Source of the DNA: Roseobacter ponti
GTDB taxonomy: Bacteria > Pseudomonadota > Alphaproteobacteria > Rhodobacterales > Rhodobacteraceae
Length of the DNA: 64,000 bases
Assembly: GCF_012932215.1 (NCBI RefSeq)
Contig: NZ_CP048788.1
Location: 558,001 to 622,000, forward strand
Direction of reading: 5' to 3'
The position numbers and the translations under genes are program-made. Within the stretch, counting starts at the first letter, position 1. The number at the start of each line of letters is the position of its first letter. The notes beneath the pieces were generated by a model. It saw nothing but the letters and a program-made list of their open reading frames with translations. It was not told where the DNA came from and searched no databases. Shown piece by piece: positions 32,249 to 38,087 of this stretch.

Positions 32249-32281
32249 AAAAGGCCGCAGCACACCCGCTGCGGCCTTTTT
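32249..32281 (+). terminator. Intrinsic terminator after tuf copy 2
   Basis: The same 13-bp stem and T run as after copy 1, at the end of the str operon. It separates str from the minus-strand aldehyde dehydrogenase gene that ends 64 bases later. Confidence 0.92.
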
Positions 32282-32344: not shown

Positions 32345-33823
32345 TCAGCGCATAACAAACGGATTGGCCATCGGTGCGTCTGACGTGCTGATCCACGTCG
32401 TCTTGGTGCGCGTGTAATCACAGATCGCTTCCATGCCGGCCTCCCGACCGTATCCGGACTGGTCGTAGCCACCGAACGGCGCAATCGGGGATACTGCGCG
32501 GTAAGTGTTGACCCAGCATATCCCTGCCTTCAGCCGCGCCGATACCCGGTGCGCACGGGCCACGTTTTGAGTAAATACACCGGAGCCGAGGCCAAAGGGC
32601 GTGTTGTTGGCTATCGCAATCGCTTCTTCCTCGGAGTCAAAGGCCAGGAGCGACATGACAGGCCCGAACATCTCAACTTTCAGCGTTTCGGTGTCTGCAT
32701 CGGCACATTCCACAAGTGTCGGCGCCATGTAATTGCCGGGCCGCTGCAGCCGCGCGCCGCCAAACCGTATCGTCGCGCCACCGGCGACGGCAGCGGCAAG
32801 CGTTTCCTCAATTTTCGTGATCTGACCGGCCGTGCACAGCGGACCGATCTGAGTGTCGGGCTCAAGAGGATCACCAATTATCACCGCCGCCATCTTTTCT
32901 TCGATTTTCTCGGCGACGGCTTTGAGCACGGAGCGATGCACGAGGCCCCGTGTACCGGCAACACAGCTTTGCCCCGACGCGCCGAAATTGCCCGCGATCA
33001 GACCGTTGGCCGCCCCGTCAAGATCTGCATCCTCAAAGACGATAACGGGCGACTTGCCACCCAGTTCCAGTGTGGTGACCGCGAAGTTCTCCGCTGAATT
33101 GCGCACCACATGCCGCGCAGCTTCCGGACCGCCGGTAAAGGCGATACGATCGACATCGGGATGGCGTGTCAGCGGGATAGCACAGTTTTCAGCGTCACCT
33201 GTAATCACAGAGACAACGCCCGGCGGGAAGCCTGCCTGTTCAATCAGCCGCGCGAATTCGAACAGCGGCGCGGGAGCAGTTTCGGAGGCTTTCAACACCA
33301 CCGCGCAGCCCGCCGCAAGCGCCGGTCCGAGCTTTGTCGCTGTCAGGAACATCTGGGCATTCCAGGGCACAATCGCGGCCACCACACCGATCGGCTCGCG
33401 TCGCGTAAAAACGTGCATGTCCGGTTTATCGATGGGCAGCACGGCACCCTCGATCTTGTCAGCCAGACCGGCGTAATAGCGATAGTAATCGCCGACATAG
33501 GCCGACTGGCTGGCCGTCTCCGCCAGCAGTTTACCGCTGTCGGTCGTCTCGATCCGGCCGATTTCCTGCGCATTCTCTTCGATCAGCCCGGCGAGGCGAT
33601 AGAGGAGTTTTCCTCTTTGCGTCTGGGTCATGTCACGCCAGACAGGGTCATTCAGCACACGCCGAGCCGCACCTATGGCACGGTCCACGTCTGCCTTTGA
33701 GGCGCAGGCGAATGTGGCCCAGTCCCGCCCTGTTGCGGGGTTCTGCGATGTCATGACCTGGCCTTCCGAGCCCTCGCTCCGGCTGCCGTCTATGAAAAGC
33801 TGATAATGCGGTTTTTTATCCAT
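32345..33823 (-). CDS. NAD(P)-dependent aldehyde dehydrogenase
   Basis: A 492-residue ALDH-superfamily enzyme that oxidises an aldehyde to the acid. The nucleophile is Cys287 in GASGQSCVAG, the general base Glu253 in LELGGKSP, and the FTGG cofactor motif precedes them at residues 229-232. It resembles betaine-aldehyde or semialdehyde dehydrogenases, but specificity is not readable. I use the ATG at 33823 because GAGGG lies five bases upstream. An ATG at 33835 would overlap the preceding stop as ATGA and is a real alternative. It is the last gene of the five-gene minus-strand operon and probably handles the aldehyde formed upstream in the pathway. Confidence 0.88.
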   Translation of the reverse strand: MDKKPHYQLFIDGSRSEGSEGQVMTSQNPATGRDWATFACASKADVDRAIGAARRVLNDPVWRDMTQTQRGKLLYRLAGLIEENAQEIGRIETTDSGKLLAETASQSAYVGDYYRYYAGLADKIEGAVLPIDKPDMHVFTRREPIGVVAAIVPWNAQMFLTATKLGPALAAGCAVVLKASETAPAPLFEFARLIEQAGFPPGVVSVITGDAENCAIPLTRHPDVDRIAFTGGPEAARHVVRNSAENFAVTTLELGGKSPVIVFEDADLDGAANGLIAGNFGASGQSCVAGTRGLVHRSVLKAVAEKIEEKMAAVIIGDPLEPDTQIGPLCTAGQITKIEETLAAAVAGGATIRFGGARLQRPGNYMAPTLVECADADTETLKVEMFGPVMSLLAFDSEEEAIAIANNTPFGLGSGVFTQNVARAHRVSARLKAGICWVNTYRAVSPIAPFGGYDQSGYGREAGMEAICDYTRTKTTWISTSDAPMANPFVMR

Positions 33824-33831
33824 CGGATCCC

Positions 33832-34866
33832 TCATCTGAAAGCCGGCATGACGTCGTTGATAAACCGCCCGAGCGATGCGCGTTTGCGCTCAAAGCTCAT
33901 GCCGCTGTCAATCCAGAACGCATATTCATCATACCCGAGATCTTCATATTTTCTGATCTTTTCGATGATTTCATCCGCCGTGCCAATGGTCAGGTCGCGC
34001 GCCATATTTTCCGGTGCCATCATCGTGTTGGACGCCATCTCTTCATCAGACAGCGGTGCGATCAGACCTTTTTCGACTGGGCGCTTGTTCTGAAACCATG
34101 CTCCGAAATGACAGTAAAAGCGTGATAACTCACGCGCGGCCTGTGCGACATCCTCGGCGTCGGAGCCGACATAGCTATGATGCAACAGCATGATCTTCGG
34201 GCGCGGCCCGTCATATCCGGCGCATGCTTGATTGAAACGGCCCATCAGCGTTTCAATTTCCTGCAGGCCCTGCCAAAGGGGCGTCACCTGAATATTGAAG
34301 CCGTTCCTGACGCCGAATTCGTGACTGTTCGGGTCCCTCGCTGCAATCCAGATCGGCGGGCCACCGTCCTGCACGGGTCCGGGCACCGCCGTCGTGGCGG
34401 GAAAGCTGTAAAACTCCCCTTCATGTGCACAGTCTCCGGCCCAGAGTTTCGGCAGCAAAGACGCGGTTTCCCGCATTCTCTGACCGGCCTCCCAGGCATC
34501 CATACCCGGCATCAGTCGCTCGTATTCGTAAGAATATGCTCCCCTTGCAATGCCAAGCTCAATCCGTCCGCCGGTCATAAGATCGGCTGCTGCGGCTTCA
34601 CCTGCCAGTTTGATCGGATGCCAGAACGGCGCGATGACCGTCCCCGTTCCCAGTCTGACGTTCTTTGTGTGGGCGGCGATATTAACCAGCGACATCAGGG
34701 GATTGGGCGCGATCGTGAATTCCATCCCGTGGTGCTCACCTGTCCAGACCGCGCGCATCCCTCCTTCATCGGCCATTCTGCACAGGGCAAGCAGTTCTTC
34801 GTTGAGTTGAGCGTGCGGCTGGTCCGGTGTCAGGAGTTCCATATGCGCAAAGAGTGAAAACTCCAT
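33832..34866 (-). CDS. Luciferase-like (LLM) flavin-dependent monooxygenase
   Basis: The 344-residue protein is a TIM-barrel flavin-dependent monooxygenase of the bacterial luciferase family. It begins MEFSLFAHMELLTPDQPHAQ and has AVWTGEHHGMEFTIAPNP (residues 39-56), VRLGTGTVIAPFWHP and GRIELGIARGAY, the regular family blocks. Such enzymes use FMNH2 and oxygen to attack carbonyls, rings or C-N/C-S bonds, and need a separate reductase. A flavin reductase gene ends two bases upstream, so the pair probably forms a two-component system. The substrate is unknown. Confidence 0.88.
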   Translation of the reverse strand: MEFSLFAHMELLTPDQPHAQLNEELLALCRMADEGGMRAVWTGEHHGMEFTIAPNPLMSLVNIAAHTKNVRLGTGTVIAPFWHPIKLAGEAAAADLMTGGRIELGIARGAYSYEYERLMPGMDAWEAGQRMRETASLLPKLWAGDCAHEGEFYSFPATTAVPGPVQDGGPPIWIAARDPNSHEFGVRNGFNIQVTPLWQGLQEIETLMGRFNQACAGYDGPRPKIMLLHHSYVGSDAEDVAQAARELSRFYCHFGAWFQNKRPVEKGLIAPLSDEEMASNTMMAPENMARDLTIGTADEIIEKIRKYEDLGYDEYAFWIDSGMSFERKRASLGRFINDVMPAFR

Positions 34867-34868
34867 GT

Positions 34869-35783
34869 TCAGGTCCTTTCTGGTAAATGATGAATGTCGC
34901 CGCGGTCAGCACCGCCAAGGTAAAACCCGAAGCTGCGGGTCTGCGATTCTACAGCGAAACGGTTCATCATGTCGTGAACGGGTTTTGAGGCGAAAGGCAG
35001 GTTCGGTATGTCCGGGACCGGATGCACTTCAAGGCTGCCGGTGTAAGGCTTTGATGCCGACGCGATGAAGTATGACGACCAGGTTTTACCGTCGTCGAAC
35101 ACCGAATAGGCGGGCCCGAGGTCGATGTGCAGGCCGCGTTCTGAAAGGCTGTCGACCAGGTCTCTTCGCAGGCGACTGCTGTCCGGGACAGGTATCTGAG
35201 GGGGGCGATATCCGGCATCGGTCTTTTCGAGCAATACGCCGTCGCCACAGGTTACGATAGCACCGGAGACTGTTGTGCTGCCTGCATGCCCGAGCGCGGA
35301 TCGTTCCAGACCGAGGCTGAAAAACCGCCCTCCGGCATAGCCAAGCCCCCGGCCTTCAAAGTGCTCAAAGCTGCGGATCCTGCCGATGAGAATCTGGTGA
35401 TCTCCCGCGTCGAGGGACTGGTGCGTACTGCAGGAAAACTGCGCAAGGGCACCGTGGATCAAAGGGCTGCCCATCTCATCGGGGACGCACTGCACCCGGG
35501 CAAAACGATCGCCTTTGTAACCGGCGAAGGTGTTCGCCACCTCTTCCTGGCCCTCGGAAAGGATATTCACCGCAAAATGCGAGCAGGTCGAAAAGCTGTC
35601 GAAGCTCGACAGAAACCGGCCGGGGCAGACAAGCAGCAGGGGCGGATCAAGCGAGACGGATGTGAATGAATTCGCCGTAAAGCCAACCGGTGTTCCGTCG
35701 GTAGTCCTGGTCGTCACGACGGTGACACCGGTCATGTAGCTGCCAAAGGCATTGCGCAGGGCGCGTTTATCAGGCCCGGTCAT
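34869..35783 (-). CDS. Flavin reductase with an extra C-terminal domain
   Basis: Residues 1-160 form a flavin-reductase-like (DIM6/NtaB type) split barrel: FGSYMTGVTVVTTRT, GFTANSFTSVSLDPPLLLVCP and FAVNIL are typical. It would supply FMNH2 to the neighbouring monooxygenase. The remaining 140 residues (IVTCGDGVLLEKTDAGYRPP through the end) make the protein nearly twice the usual length of about 165; I do not recognise this part. It overlaps the upstream hydrolase stop by four bases (ATGA), so translation is probably coupled. Confidence 0.85.
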   Translation of the reverse strand: MTGPDKRALRNAFGSYMTGVTVVTTRTTDGTPVGFTANSFTSVSLDPPLLLVCPGRFLSSFDSFSTCSHFAVNILSEGQEEVANTFAGYKGDRFARVQCVPDEMGSPLIHGALAQFSCSTHQSLDAGDHQILIGRIRSFEHFEGRGLGYAGGRFFSLGLERSALGHAGSTTVSGAIVTCGDGVLLEKTDAGYRPPQIPVPDSSRLRRDLVDSLSERGLHIDLGPAYSVFDDGKTWSSYFIASASKPYTGSLEVHPVPDIPNLPFASKPVHDMMNRFAVESQTRSFGFYLGGADRGDIHHLPERT

Positions 35784-36568
35784 GCCGGTGCCTCCTGTGC
35801 AAGCGCGCGCAGTGCCGCATTCACAGCCTCCGGATGGGTCAGCGGCATCATATGCGCCGCGCCCTTGATAATGATGGCCCGTCCGCCAGGCGTCAGGTCG
35901 GCCATCGCACGGGACATCTCCGGCGTGGAATTCGGCTCAAGCGAACCGGTGATAAACCGCGCGGGGCATTTTATCGCGGTCAGTGACGCGCGGGTCGGCG
36001 CGTCTGCACGGGCAAAGGCCGTATAGGCCTGTTTATATCCCGCCGGGTCCACTTCCTGCAGCCATGTCCTGCAGGCTGACCGCTCAGGTGACAGGTCATC
36101 TCCGAACCAGCGCTGAAGGGTGGCCGCAGGATCGGGCACTGTTTTTCCGTCAAGGTCCGCGGCGCGCGCCTGGACTGCTTTTGCGGCCGCGGGGCTGCGC
36201 TCGAAAACGGCATTCAGCGCAGCGACCCCACAGACTTTTTCCGGGGCAGCACTGGCCAGAGACAGCGCGATCATCGCCCCCATGGAATGACCGATAACCA
36301 GCGCGCGCCCGGGCAGCTCTTCAAGGACGCCGCGCATCGCAGCGGTGTAATCCGCGAGCGCCATCTCACCGGTCGGGCAGGGGCTGAGACCGTGGCCGGG
36401 CATATCGGGTGCAATCACCTGACCGCAGCCTGCGAGGGCGTCAAACTGCTTTTGCCATGCTTCGGCCCGCAGGCCCACGCCATGCAGAAGCAGGACCGGC
36501 CGCCCTGTGCCGGTCCGGGTCGTGGCAAGGCCTGCGATCTCAGACCGACGCAGGGTTGTCGAGGTCAT
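35780..36568 (-). CDS. Alpha/beta hydrolase
   Basis: A 262-residue alpha/beta-hydrolase-fold protein with oxyanion region LLHGVG (28-33), PGHG, nucleophile Ser95 in GHSMGA, and His239 in GAAHMM. At the usual acid position the sequence reads GSLEPN, so Glu211 stands where most relatives have Asp. Hydrolysis of an ester, amide, lactone or C-C bond of the pathway intermediate is likely. It overlaps the PF06684 gene by 29 bases and the reductase gene by four, so the operon is very compact. Confidence 0.85.
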   Translation of the reverse strand: MTSTTLRRSEIAGLATTRTGTGRPVLLLHGVGLRAEAWQKQFDALAGCGQVIAPDMPGHGLSPCPTGEMALADYTAAMRGVLEELPGRALVIGHSMGAMIALSLASAAPEKVCGVAALNAVFERSPAAAKAVQARAADLDGKTVPDPAATLQRWFGDDLSPERSACRTWLQEVDPAGYKQAYTAFARADAPTRASLTAIKCPARFITGSLEPNSTPEMSRAMADLTPGGRAIIIKGAAHMMPLTHPEAVNAALRALAQEAPA

Positions 36569-37139
36569 GGCCCAGATCCTTCAGGTCCTGATAGCGGTCT
36601 CCGATACGGTGATGCGGTCTGCCGGACAGCGCCGCGCCGAGGACAACGACCACCTCGTCATCGCGCGGCGCATCAGGGACGGCGAACTGGATCGTCAGAT
36701 AATGCGAGCGCCGGCCAGCGTCGTTCTTGTCCATCAACGGAACCAGGATCGGCGCGTTGGCCGGGCCGCGGGTGTTGGTAAAAGCAAGATAGGATTTCGC
36801 CGCGACGGCTTCCCGATAAAAATTGCCGAACCGCAGAGTGTGGATCAGCCCGGACGCATGCTCTATCTCGCCGTCCAGTCCGACCACGGCGGCCTTTCCG
36901 TACGCTTCGATCTGCGCGCCGCTGCCCGCAAGAGCGATCATCCTGTCCGCCATCATACTGCCGAGAACCGGACCATAGGCGCGGATCTCAGGCGTCAGGT
37001 CTTCGACATAACGGCCTGCCCAGGGGTTTCGCAGCACGGCCGCCACGGCAAACATGCGCCATGGCGTTTTCGCAGCGCGGAACCCTTCGATGAAGACCTC
37101 TTCGTCATAGGTCACGATTTTCCGGATGTCGGGCGTCAT
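36540..37139 (-). CDS. Amino acid synthesis (PF06684, DUF1185) family protein
   Basis: The 199-residue protein matches the amino-acid-synthesis family: it begins MTPDIRKIVTYDEEVFIEG and contains AAVLRNPWAGRYVEDLTPEI and GSMMADRM. From memory, a structural-genomics member has a chorismate-mutase-like fold, but the reaction is unknown. The ATG at 37139 is preceded by GAGGAG four bases away and is preferred over the GTG at 37145. It is the first gene of the operon, transcribed divergently from the LysR gene. Confidence 0.82.
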   Translation of the reverse strand: MTPDIRKIVTYDEEVFIEGFRAAKTPWRMFAVAAVLRNPWAGRYVEDLTPEIRAYGPVLGSMMADRMIALAGSGAQIEAYGKAAVVGLDGEIEHASGLIHTLRFGNFYREAVAAKSYLAFTNTRGPANAPILVPLMDKNDAGRRSHYLTIQFAVPDAPRDDEVVVVLGAALSGRPHHRIGDRYQDLKDLGHDLDNPASV

Positions 37140-37244
37140 GGTCACTCCTCATTGCTGACCAGAACAGTAGAAAGCACCCGGAATTTTGACAAACGAATGA
37201 AAGTCACGCTTAGGTATTACAAACACTAATGGCAGATTTGACCA
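37140..37244. promoter_or_regulatory. Divergent promoter/operator region of the LysR-controlled operon
   Basis: The 105 bases hold TTGACA (37185-37190) on the plus strand about 17-18 bases before TTAGGT/TAGGTA, and an interrupted inverted repeat TTAG-N12-CTAA (37210-37229), within which CTAAT equals the core recognised by GcvA-type LysR proteins. It is the natural site for the regulator to control itself and the operon. Read by eye. Confidence 0.45.
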
Positions 37245-38087
37245 GTGAGAAAAAACCTTCCCCCGCTGACCTGGCTGCGCTCATTCGAAGCTGCGGCGCG
37301 GAACCTGAGTTTTACCGCTGCCGCCGAAGAGATCGGACTGACACAGTCCGCCGTCAGCCAGCAGGTGAAATCGCTTGAAACACGGCTCAGAGTGCCGCTT
37401 TTTGTGCGCCATGCCCGGGGGCTCGCACTGACCGATGCGGGACGCCGCCTGTTGCCGGAAGTGGGCGTGCCGCTGCAGGCGCTGGCCGTGGCGATGGACG
37501 GGGCTGATGCAGGGCCGGATAAGGGGCTGCTGACCATCGCGGCTTCTGTAAGCGTGGTGCAATGGGTCATCGCGCCCCTGCTGCCGGATTTCACGCGGCA
37601 TCACCTGTCGCTCAGGCTCAGGTTTCTCAGTGCGATCTGGCCTGATGATTTTCAGTCGGCCCGTGCTGATCTGGAAATCCGCTTCGGGTCACTCAGGCAG
37701 GCCGGAGAAAACGCCGAACTTCTGCTGCCCAACCGGCTTGTTGCGCTGAAATCACCCGCGCTAAGCGGTGCGCTGGAAGATCTTCCCCTGATTGAGGCGG
37801 TTGGCACGTCGGGCGGCTGGCAAACCTGGGCAAAAGAAGTCGGAGACACCAGGCCTCCGTCTTTTTACACCGATACATACGGCATGGCTTTGCAGCTGGC
37901 GGTGCACGGCAGCGGTGTGGCGCTGGTGAGCGAACTGCTGGCGGGTCATGCTCTGAAGTCGGGACTTCTTGAGCCAGCGCATCCCGCGTCTGTTGCCGCC
38001 GACGAGGGCTATTACCTGTCGGTTACCCCAGATAAGCCGGAAGCCGGTCGGTTTCGTGACTGGTTGCTCGAAAAGCTGACCACCTGA
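37245..38087 (+). CDS. LysR-family transcriptional regulator (GcvA-like)
   Basis: A 280-residue LysR-type regulator: residues 1-60 contain the winged helix-turn-helix with LPPLTWLRSFEAAARNLSFTAAAEEIGLTQSAVSQQVKSLE, and the rest is the periplasmic-binding-protein-like effector domain ending in the GcvA-like GVALVSELLAGHAL region. The start is a GTG because the family N-terminus follows immediately. It is divergent from the five-gene operon and likely activates it in the presence of the pathway substrate. A hairpin over its stop codon ends its transcript. Confidence 0.9.
   Translation: MRKNLPPLTWLRSFEAAARNLSFTAAAEEIGLTQSAVSQQVKSLETRLRVPLFVRHARGLALTDAGRRLLPEVGVPLQALAVAMDGADAGPDKGLLTIAASVSVVQWVIAPLLPDFTRHHLSLRLRFLSAIWPDDFQSARADLEIRFGSLRQAGENAELLLPNRLVALKSPALSGALEDLPLIEAVGTSGGWQTWAKEVGDTRPPSFYTDTYGMALQLAVHGSGVALVSELLAGHALKSGLLEPAHPASVAADEGYYLSVTPDKPEAGRFRDWLLEKLTT

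What the first reader, a model, noticed from the sequence alone, without database searches (positions are those of the whole stretch)
32345..38087. Uncharacterised LysR-controlled two-component flavin monooxygenase operon
Five minus-strand genes with 2-29 base overlaps or touching ends (PF06684 protein, alpha/beta hydrolase, flavin reductase, luciferase-like monooxygenase, aldehyde dehydrogenase), facing a LysR gene, read as one pathway: monooxygenation, hydrolysis, then aldehyde oxidation. Published pyridine-type pathways use a similar enzyme set (two-component monooxygenase, hydrolase, semialdehyde dehydrogenase), but the PF06684 protein and the long reductase are not part of what I know. 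A substrate with a ring or C-N bond is plausible; none can be named. It is wedged between the str and S10 units, suggesting lateral arrival or local duplication.
Basis: partly seen in the sequence, partly recalled or inferred. Interest (0 to 1): 0.72.

Follow-up and report, generated by a model that had tools for sequence, protein, structure and literature searches.

The report
LysR-controlled trigonelline-degradation operon variant
These six genes look like a mainly marine version of a known bacterial pathway that opens the ring of trigonelline, a plant and algal betaine, so the operon is less mysterious than it seemed; the surprise is that it has a different switch gene and that none of the genomes sampled carried both it and the usual version.

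Summary
In detail: five tightly packed minus-strand genes (32345-37145) face a LysR gene, between tuf and rpsJ. It is not an unplaced operon. In the same order it matches a cluster annotated in an Acinetobacter plasmid as trigonelline monooxygenase tgnA/tgnB and dehydrogenase tgnC: oxygenase 60%, PF06684 protein 67%, dehydrogenase 55%, hydrolase 42%, long reductase 37% over 299 residues. A paper passage treats TgnF of A. baylyi as a homologue of a PF06684-type protein. New here: the window belongs to a separate clade. Of 60 clade II loci 58 have a divergent LysR gene and none the GntR; of 45 clade I loci all have GntR and none that LysR. Of 58 clade II intergenic regions 40 carry ATTA-N7-TAAT exactly. 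No sampled genome holds both clades: 65 with I, 73 with II, which argues for one job. The reductase's extra domain has a Nudix fold without a Nudix box. Lateral arrival is likely. Best reading: trigonelline ring opening to succinate semialdehyde, methylamine and formate; a related N-methylpyridinium such as homarine is not excluded.

The parts
36540..37145 (-). tgnF-like gene, PF06684 (AA_synth/DUF1185) protein, 201 aa; first gene of the operon
   Evidence: PF06684 239 bits; 67% identical to the PF06684 protein of the Acinetobacter tgn cluster; relatives with structures 2qtp and 3byq
35780..36568 (-). tgnD-like alpha/beta hydrolase, 262 aa, Ser in GHSMG
   Evidence: Pfam; 42% over 242 aa to the hydrolase of the Acinetobacter cluster; GHSMG found
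34869..35783 (-). tgnA-like flavin reductase, 304 aa: reductase domain (about 14-157) plus a C-terminal Nudix-fold domain (about 165-304) without Nudix box
   Evidence: Flavin_Reduct 14-157; 37% over 299 aa to annotated TgnA; PDB 3rh7 over residues 5-301; Nudix fold; no Nudix box in 34 of 34 rows examined
33832..34866 (-). tgnB-like luciferase-family oxygenase, 344 aa
   Evidence: Bac_luciferase; 60% over 344 aa to annotated TgnB; the only Bac_luciferase match in the genome
32345..33835 (-). tgnC-like aldehyde dehydrogenase, 496 aa
   Evidence: Aldedh 505 bits; 55% to annotated TgnC, 33% to the SSADH linked to that cluster
37245..38087 (+). LysR-family regulator (best NCBIfam match GcvA, under its cut-off), 280 aa, divergent from the operon
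   Evidence: Pfam and NCBIfam; a LysR match of over 41% in the same divergent position in 58 of 60 clade II loci and in 0 of 45 clade I loci
37216..37230 (+). conserved LysR-type box ATTA-N7-TAAT in the divergent intergenic region; its only exact occurrence in the 64-kb window
   Evidence: exact in 40 of 58 clade II intergenic regions, at most 1 mismatch in 56 of 58; shuffles give means of 0.18 and 4.0 of 58 (maxima 1 and 10 in 100 rounds); clade I: 0 of 45 with at most 1 mismatch
37185..37196 (-). second conserved block (minus strand TCGTTTGTCAAA), perhaps the promoter -35 area or a second regulator contact (inference)
   Evidence: columns conserved in at least 70% or 90% of the 58 rows; sequence read
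32249..32280 (.). 14-pair stem with a T-rich tail between the convergent ends of tuf and the operon (likely terminator)
   Evidence: pattern scan: 6 terminator-like sites found against 5.6 expected in shuffles, so the count means nothing; this is the longest stem listed

Best explanation
The operon encodes a trigonelline (N-methylnicotinate) catabolic module of the tgn kind, in a LysR-controlled version. Proposed working: LysR bound at ATTA-N7-TAAT senses the substrate and turns on the five genes. The reductase uses NADH to make reduced flavin; its Nudix-fold domain lacks the catalytic box and so probably binds a nucleotide or ligand, or docks. The luciferase-type oxygenase uses reduced flavin and O2 to open the pyridinium ring. 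The dehydrogenase oxidises the ring-opened hydroxybutyrolactone/aldehyde to the N-formyl-N-methyl-enamine diacid. The alpha/beta hydrolase breaks this into succinate semialdehyde, methylamine, formate and CO2. The PF06684 protein assists, as reported for TgnF, rather than catalysing an unknown main step. An unlinked succinate-semialdehyde dehydrogenase and the genome's methylamine-type genes take up the products. Shown here: gene identity, order, conserved regulator and box, clade distribution. Inferred by homology: every chemical step and the substrate. The hydroxybutyrolactone name is from the annotation; the other intermediates and products are recalled from Perchat et al. 2018, which I could not read.
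For: Gene-for-gene match in the same order to a cluster annotated tgnA/tgnB/tgnC with an SSADH downstream. HcdD, a DUF1185/PF06684-type protein, is called homologous to TgnF, which stimulates TgnE in A. baylyi (passage). TgnA/TgnB open the aromatic ring of trigonelline, and R. pomeroyi DSS-3 did not grow on homarine as effectively as on trigonelline (passages). S. meliloti pSymA carries the same five genes plus an ABC transporter and an SSADH; genes for trigonelline use in R. [quoted passage not shown] Clade II is one starred clade (100/99) with the two rhizobial plasmid rows as weakly supported sister (91/66). Clades I and II share no sampled genome: 0 of 390 against 5.6 expected, P 0.0017; 0 of 395 in a partly overlapping sample, 2.4 expected, P 0.07; union of four surveys 65 and 73 genomes, 0 both. 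By contrast the more distant luciferase group occurs with clade II at the chance rate, 3 against 3.5. At 147 oxygenase positions at least 93% conserved in each clade, 142 have the same residue and 5 differ. An unlinked dehydrogenase is 66% identical to the SSADH beside the S. meliloti cluster. A type III glutamine-synthetase-like (gmaS-like) gene is over its cut-off, with glutamate-synthase-like and amidotransferase-like genes beside it.
Against: I found no biochemical or growth evidence for a clade II member. Clade II has its own regulator family and, in the window, no linked transporter or SSADH; its hydrolase (42%) and reductase (37%) are further from Acinetobacter than those of the clade I loci are (48-60% and 41-52%). 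The reductase gene is missing from 16 of 60 clade II operons and 0 of 45 clade I, so clade II may be drifting. Five clade-specific residues (window-clade residue first: R38H, L137A, C146Y, F190C, N280H) could mark a changed pocket. Some clade II oxygenase relatives break the LysR pattern (L041; and L272, L289, L290, L291 of the named set have upstream sequence without a LysR match, three of them with a shortened or diverged PF06684 gene). The exclusion test ignores shared ancestry, except that several genera hold both clades; clades in the surveys were assigned by identity band; and some genomes had only 5 candidates scored. The third group also misses clade I in the 390 sample (0 against 2.8, P 0.047), so an absence of overlap alone is weak proof. 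The tgn names are annotation, not a test. The A. baylyi ADP1 sequences themselves were not compared.
Confidence: 0.74

Rival explanations
1. Same chemistry, different ring: clade II opens another N-methylpyridinium or pyridine carboxylate, for example homarine (N-methylpicolinate), the isomer of trigonelline that is more abundant in seawater particles. Ring opening, oxidation and hydrolysis would then give a five-carbon oxo-acid or amino acid instead of succinate semialdehyde.
For: The named clade II loci come mostly from genera that I know as marine (names, best 80 of 584 relatives; habitat recalled); separate regulator and box; no linked SSADH or transporter in the window; five fixed residue differences in the oxygenase; homarine exceeded trigonelline in marine particles (passage; a correction, PMC10134881, seen as an abstract start, says homarine was overstated). 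A 2026 paper reports a homarine pathway in environmental bacteria (reference seen; paper not held).
Against: Clades I and II share no sampled genome, as alternatives for one job would and complementary pathways would not; 142 of 147 doubly conserved positions are identical; the authors of PMC8269262 consider the TgnA/TgnB machinery unlikely to act on homarine for steric reasons (passage).
Confidence: 0.16
2. A generic or unrelated oxidation pathway: the genes are linked by history but act on an unrelated substrate without such a ring.
For: A third luciferase group (33-41% identical) sits in operons with some of the same families next to other catabolic genes (Agrobacterium fabrum pAt, Parasedimentitalea marina).
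Against: The window is 59-69% identical to clade I, 60% to annotated TgnB, and the two third-group rows are clearly separate in the tree.
Confidence: 0.08
3. Local duplication placed the operon between tuf and rpsJ.
For: None found.
Against: Single luciferase and PF06684 matches in the genome. The window and one close relative (95%) branch away from the other clade II loci of their own genus; holding them together is rejected (p-AU 4e-65, 3e-4, 2e-4 for three groupings). tuf and rpsJ are 156-199 nt apart in 7 of 17 other genus members.
Confidence: 0.02

Closest known systems
Trigonelline degradation (tgn) genes of Acinetobacter (A. baylyi ADP1, Perchat et al. 2018, recalled and seen only as a reference; compared here: the annotated cluster of Acinetobacter sp. 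PK01 plasmid NZ_CP094644)
   Same: Same five families in the same order, tight spacing, long matches in all five
   Different: LysR instead of GntR/DUF1330; none of the cluster's permease, SSADH or carboxymuconolactone-decarboxylase-like genes beside the window operon; oxygenase 60% to PK01 TgnB, against a mean of 72% between PK01 TgnB and clade I
Sinorhizobium meliloti pSymA cluster (its reductase is SMa0793 = PDB 3rh7, or nearly so)
   Same: Same five genes and order; reductase architecture solved as 3rh7
   Different: GntR gene on the same strand, linked ABC transporter and SSADH
C1 reductase of p-hydroxyphenylacetate hydroxylase (5zc2/5zyr)
   Same: N-terminal flavin reductase domain and similar total length
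   Different: Only residues 5-154 match; the extra domain here is Nudix-fold, whereas that of C1 is MarR-like (recalled)
Pyridine-degradation pyr clusters of actinobacteria (recalled)
   Same: Two-component luciferase-type monooxygenase plus semialdehyde dehydrogenase and a hydrolase
   Different: Not compared here; hydrolase families differ as I recall them

Membership tests
tgn (trigonelline) operon | Luciferase-family oxygenase orthologous to TgnB | tested here: met
   60% over 344 aa to annotated TgnB; clades I and II group together, apart from two third-group rows
tgn (trigonelline) operon | Two-domain flavin reductase of TgnA type | tested here: met
   299 aa aligned at 37%; 3rh7 over 5-301
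tgn (trigonelline) operon | TgnC dehydrogenase and TgnD-like hydrolase in the same operon | tested here: met
   55% and 42%, same order; the name TgnD for the hydrolase is recalled, the PK01 record calls it alpha/beta hydrolase
tgn (trigonelline) operon | PF06684 protein (TgnF) | tested here: met
   67% to the PF06684-type protein of the annotated cluster; TgnF described as homologous to such a protein
tgn (trigonelline) operon | GntR regulator and linked SSADH/transporter as in the Acinetobacter cluster | tested here: not met
   LysR instead; no such neighbours beside the operon; an SSADH 66% identical to the S. meliloti one lies elsewhere. I do not count this as defining, since neighbours vary within clade I too
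tgn (trigonelline) operon | Oxygen-dependent ring opening of trigonelline | not testable with these tools
   needs an enzyme or growth assay
Catalytic Nudix hydrolases (C-terminal domain of the reductase) | Nudix box GX5EX7REUXEEXGU (motif recalled) | tested here: not met
   0 of 34 rows, REXXEE core 0 of 34; the fold is met
LysR-type regulation | Divergent LysR gene with a T-N11-A type box between the genes | tested here: met
   58 of 60 loci with divergent LysR; box exact in 40 of 58 and with at most one mismatch in 56 of 58
Homarine catabolic operon (2026 paper) | Homology to its genes | not testable with these tools
   paper not held, no sequences at hand

The most novel reading that the evidence does not exclude
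Clade II is a mainly marine pyridinium ring-opening pathway with a changed substrate (homarine or another N-methylpyridinium), which evolved from the trigonelline operon by swapping GntR for LysR and often dropping its own reductase, and whose reductase, where kept, is gated by a dead Nudix domain.
Probability: 0.15. Interest if true: 0.58.

Novelty: new variant of a known kind. Interest (0 to 1): 0.36.

Why it matters
It gives a testable function to an operon whose oxygenase occurs in 52 of 390 sampled genomes of the order and that would otherwise read as 'unknown monooxygenase operon', and it links PDB entry 3rh7, a putative oxidoreductase without an assigned role, to the trigonelline reductase. 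Two versions under different regulators that were not found together are a natural experiment in how a betaine-degradation module is swapped and rewired among marine bacteria. Trigonelline and homarine are nitrogen-bearing solutes found in phytoplankton and marine particles (passages), so knowing who can use which matters for marine nitrogen and carbon budgets.

Tried and rejected
Considered and rejected: part of a ribosomal unit (opposite strand, stem between the convergent ends); local duplication; foreign base composition (GC 0.57-0.65 per kb across the operon against 0.56-0.62 around it, no clear signal).

Led nowhere: deciding which clade Ruegeria pomeroyi DSS-3 carries, which would have tied a growth phenotype to a clade. 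Its megaplasmid has no match and no near-identical genome turned up among the 54 genomes searched (best full-length match 77% identity). Perchat 2018 and Ferrer-Gonzalez 2026 are not held. Literature searches (listings of at most 20 papers each) showed no paper that, by title and abstract start, describes a LysR-controlled tgn operon; I saw passages of PMC7913881, PMC2954203, PMC8269262, PMC13390433, PMC9151330, PMC6297676, PMC13327496 and PMC11354265 and read none in full. A promoter scan found no convincing sigma-70 site (1 found, 1.9 expected). The first structure model covers both domains but with poor relative placement (pTM 0.56), so the second domain was folded alone (pTM 0.83).

Rows and choices to tell: L191 (G483, 49%, GntR) and G644 (partial, one stop) are in neither clade. 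L042 (contig ends) and L041 (no match to AldDH or LysR even at E 1e-3) count as clade II without LysR. The 60 and 45 fetched loci are not all: of the order sample's clade I places a dozen or so were not fetched. The reductase alignment used 34 rows: the window, 20 of 40 long-enough clade II and 13 of 45 clade I reductases. In the named set the tool kept the best 80 of 584 relatives; 72 of these 80 have the LysR. Of the 8 without, four are short upstream (L254, L271, L275, L286) and four (L272, L289, L290, L291) have upstream sequence but no match. Clade counts for searches were read by eye from the tables by identity band and entered.
Full report
What is there. Window 32345-37145 (minus strand) holds five genes, in transcription order PF06684 protein, alpha/beta hydrolase, long flavin reductase, luciferase-like oxygenase, aldehyde dehydrogenase. 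Junctions are a 29-base overlap, a 4-base overlap, a 2-base gap and a 4-base overlap. A LysR-family gene (37245-38087, plus strand) diverges from it. tuf converges on the operon's distal end, with a 14-pair stem at 32249-32280 between them; rpsJ follows LysR.

What it is. In the plasmid collection 252 records hold a relative of the oxygenase at 60% identity or more, the best at 68%, and the five such loci opened, from Leisingera, Ruegeria, Rhizobium, Sinorhizobium meliloti pSymA and Pantoea, show the same five genes in the same order. In Acinetobacter sp. PK01 the record names the reductase tgnA, the oxygenase tgnB (flavin-dependent trigonelline monooxygenase components) and the dehydrogenase tgnC ((Z)-2-((N-methylformamido)methylene)-5-hydroxybutyrolactone dehydrogenase), with a succinate-semialdehyde dehydrogenase (SSADH) downstream and sarcosine-oxidase-like genes and folD upstream. 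The window's proteins match these at 60% (oxygenase), 55% (dehydrogenase), 67% (PF06684), 42% (hydrolase) and 37% over 299 residues (reductase). [quoted passage not shown] baylyi ADP1 (passage, PMC7913881). The original trigonelline paper (PNAS 2018) was not held; the chemistry I give beyond the names above is recalled.

Two versions. Oxygenase identities fall in separate bands. In a sample of 390 genomes of the order, 52 have a copy at 72-100% to the window (clade II, the window included), 42 at 59-69% (clade I), one at 49%, and 26 genomes have a distant group at 33-41% (read from the table by eye and entered). I fetched loci around the oxygenase and classed 60 as clade II and 45 as clade I (six clade I loci are plasmid records). 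A LysR match of at least 41% lies divergently in 58 of 60 clade II loci and in none of 45 clade I loci; a GntR gene lies beside the operon in 45 of 45 clade I loci (divergent in 43) and in none of 60 clade II loci. In a maximum-likelihood tree clade II is one clade (100/99), with the two rhizobial GntR-type rows as sister at weak support (91/66). The regulator change therefore probably happened once, inside the trigonelline family. Exceptions exist: L041 shows no LysR or dehydrogenase match, and four of the 80 best named relatives (L272, L289, L290, L291) have upstream sequence without a LysR match; three of these (two Silicimonas and one Boseongicola MAG by title) also have a short or diverged PF06684 gene.

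Regulatory site. The 99-bp divergent region holds ATTA-N7-TAAT at 37216-37230, its only exact occurrence in the window. Of 58 clade II intergenic regions (window included) 40 have it exactly, 16 with one mismatch and 2 with two. Dinucleotide-preserving shuffles average 0.19 exact (200 rounds, maximum 2; 0.18, maximum 1 in 100 rounds) and 4.0 with at most one mismatch (maximum 10 of 58). Of 45 clade I upstream regions none has it with fewer than two mismatches. A second block, TTTGTCAAA on the minus strand, is also conserved.

Same substrate or not. No sampled genome has both clades: 0 of 390 (expected 5.6, hypergeometric P 0.0017) and 0 of 395 in a second sample that partly overlaps the first (expected 2.4, P 0.07). 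Over the four surveys the union is 65 genomes with clade I and 73 with clade II, none with both. Several genera hold both clades in different species, for example the window's own genus, with 10 clade II, 2 clade I and 7 of 19 with neither, so this is not merely two separate lineages; but the test takes no account of ancestry, and for some genomes only five candidates were scored. The distant third group is a contrast: it occurs with clade II 3 times against 3.5 expected; with clade I it occurs 0 times against 2.8 (P 0.047) in the same sample, though it does occur with clade I in the second sample (G583, G637). Of 147 oxygenase positions at least 93% conserved in each clade, 142 agree and 5 differ. 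I read this as two alternative versions of one function, hence trigonelline, at 0.74. The main rival is a sister substrate such as homarine (0.16): named clade II loci are mostly from genera I know as marine, the regulator differs, and the paper on homarine genes could not be read.

Parts that vary. The reductase gene is missing from 16 of 60 clade II operons and 0 of 45 clade I operons; in these 16 only 2-99 nt separate the hydrolase and oxygenase genes. In the named set it is missing from 15 of 80. A host flavin reductase presumably substitutes. Where present, residues 14-157 in the window are the usual reductase domain. Residues about 165-304 have no Pfam match, but a profile of 34 rows finds only 3rh7 (1.8e-27) and four Nudix-type proteins (E 0.0045 to 0.42) in the PDB, and an AlphaFold2 model of the domain (pLDDT 88, pTM 0.83) matches the Nudix hydrolase 3cng and 3rh7 best. 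None of the 34 rows has a Nudix box. 3rh7 is SMa0793 of S. meliloti, almost identical to the pSymA reductase of the five-gene cluster; [quoted passage not shown]

Fit with the genome. The genome has one luciferase-family match and one PF06684 match. An unlinked aldehyde dehydrogenase is 66% identical to the SSADH beside the S. meliloti cluster, a candidate TgnE. A type III glutamine synthetase over its NCBIfam cut-off sits beside glutamate-synthase-like and amidotransferase-like genes, the arrangement that I recall for methylamine assimilation (mgsABC-gmaS) in roseobacters; methylamine is the predicted nitrogen product.

How it got there. Of the 11 other genus members with either clade, only one (G499, oxygenase 95% identical) has the operon between tuf and rpsJ; among the 80 best named loci only L221, apparently the same contig, does. 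In 7 of 17 other genus members tuf ends 156-199 nt before rpsJ, in 6 the distance is about 1.2-1.4 kb, and in 4 tuf was outside the fetched flank. The window pair branches away from the other clade II rows of its genus; three groupings that would hold them together are rejected (p-AU 4e-65, 3e-4, 2e-4; the last two groups were named after seeing the tree). Lateral arrival from another member of the family is likely; the donor is unknown.

Verdict. A real, widespread and largely explainable operon: a LysR-controlled variant of the known trigonelline module, with a testable substrate, a defined candidate regulatory box, and an overlooked Nudix-fold domain in its reductase.

Noticed in passing
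window 34869-35783, residues about 165-304: The reductase carries a Nudix-fold domain without a Nudix box, shared with PDB 3rh7 (SMa0793); no Pfam model matches it.
   Followed up: yes
L112, L123, L129, L132, L151, L162 and ten other clade II loci: The flavin reductase gene is absent and the hydrolase gene lies 2-99 nt from the oxygenase gene (16 of 60 clade II loci).
   Followed up: partly
L289, L290, L291: Clade II-like operons (two Silicimonas MAGs, one Boseongicola MAG by title) without a LysR match upstream and with a short or diverged PF06684 gene; L290 has ABC-transporter-like genes downstream: a possible third arrangement.
   Followed up: partly
L037 (Agrobacterium fabrum pAt), L038 (Parasedimentitalea marina pW43B): A third luciferase group (38-41% to the window) sits in operons with PF06684, aldehyde dehydrogenase, alpha/beta hydrolase and other catabolic genes; in L038 the 'CoA transferase' frame matches the flavin reductase over 306 residues.
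   Followed up: no
L191 (G483): An oxygenase only 49% identical to the window, with GntR and all five genes: an early branch or a different substrate.
   Followed up: no
L059 1-5407: folD and sarcosine-oxidase-like subunits next to the Acinetobacter tgn cluster, consistent with use of released methylamine or one-carbon units.
   Followed up: no
tuf-rpsJ interval in the window's genus (L192-L210): The interval varies: about 160-200 nt in 7 of 17 other members, about 1.2-1.4 kb in 6, unknown in 4; it may be a site that takes up genes.
   Followed up: partly
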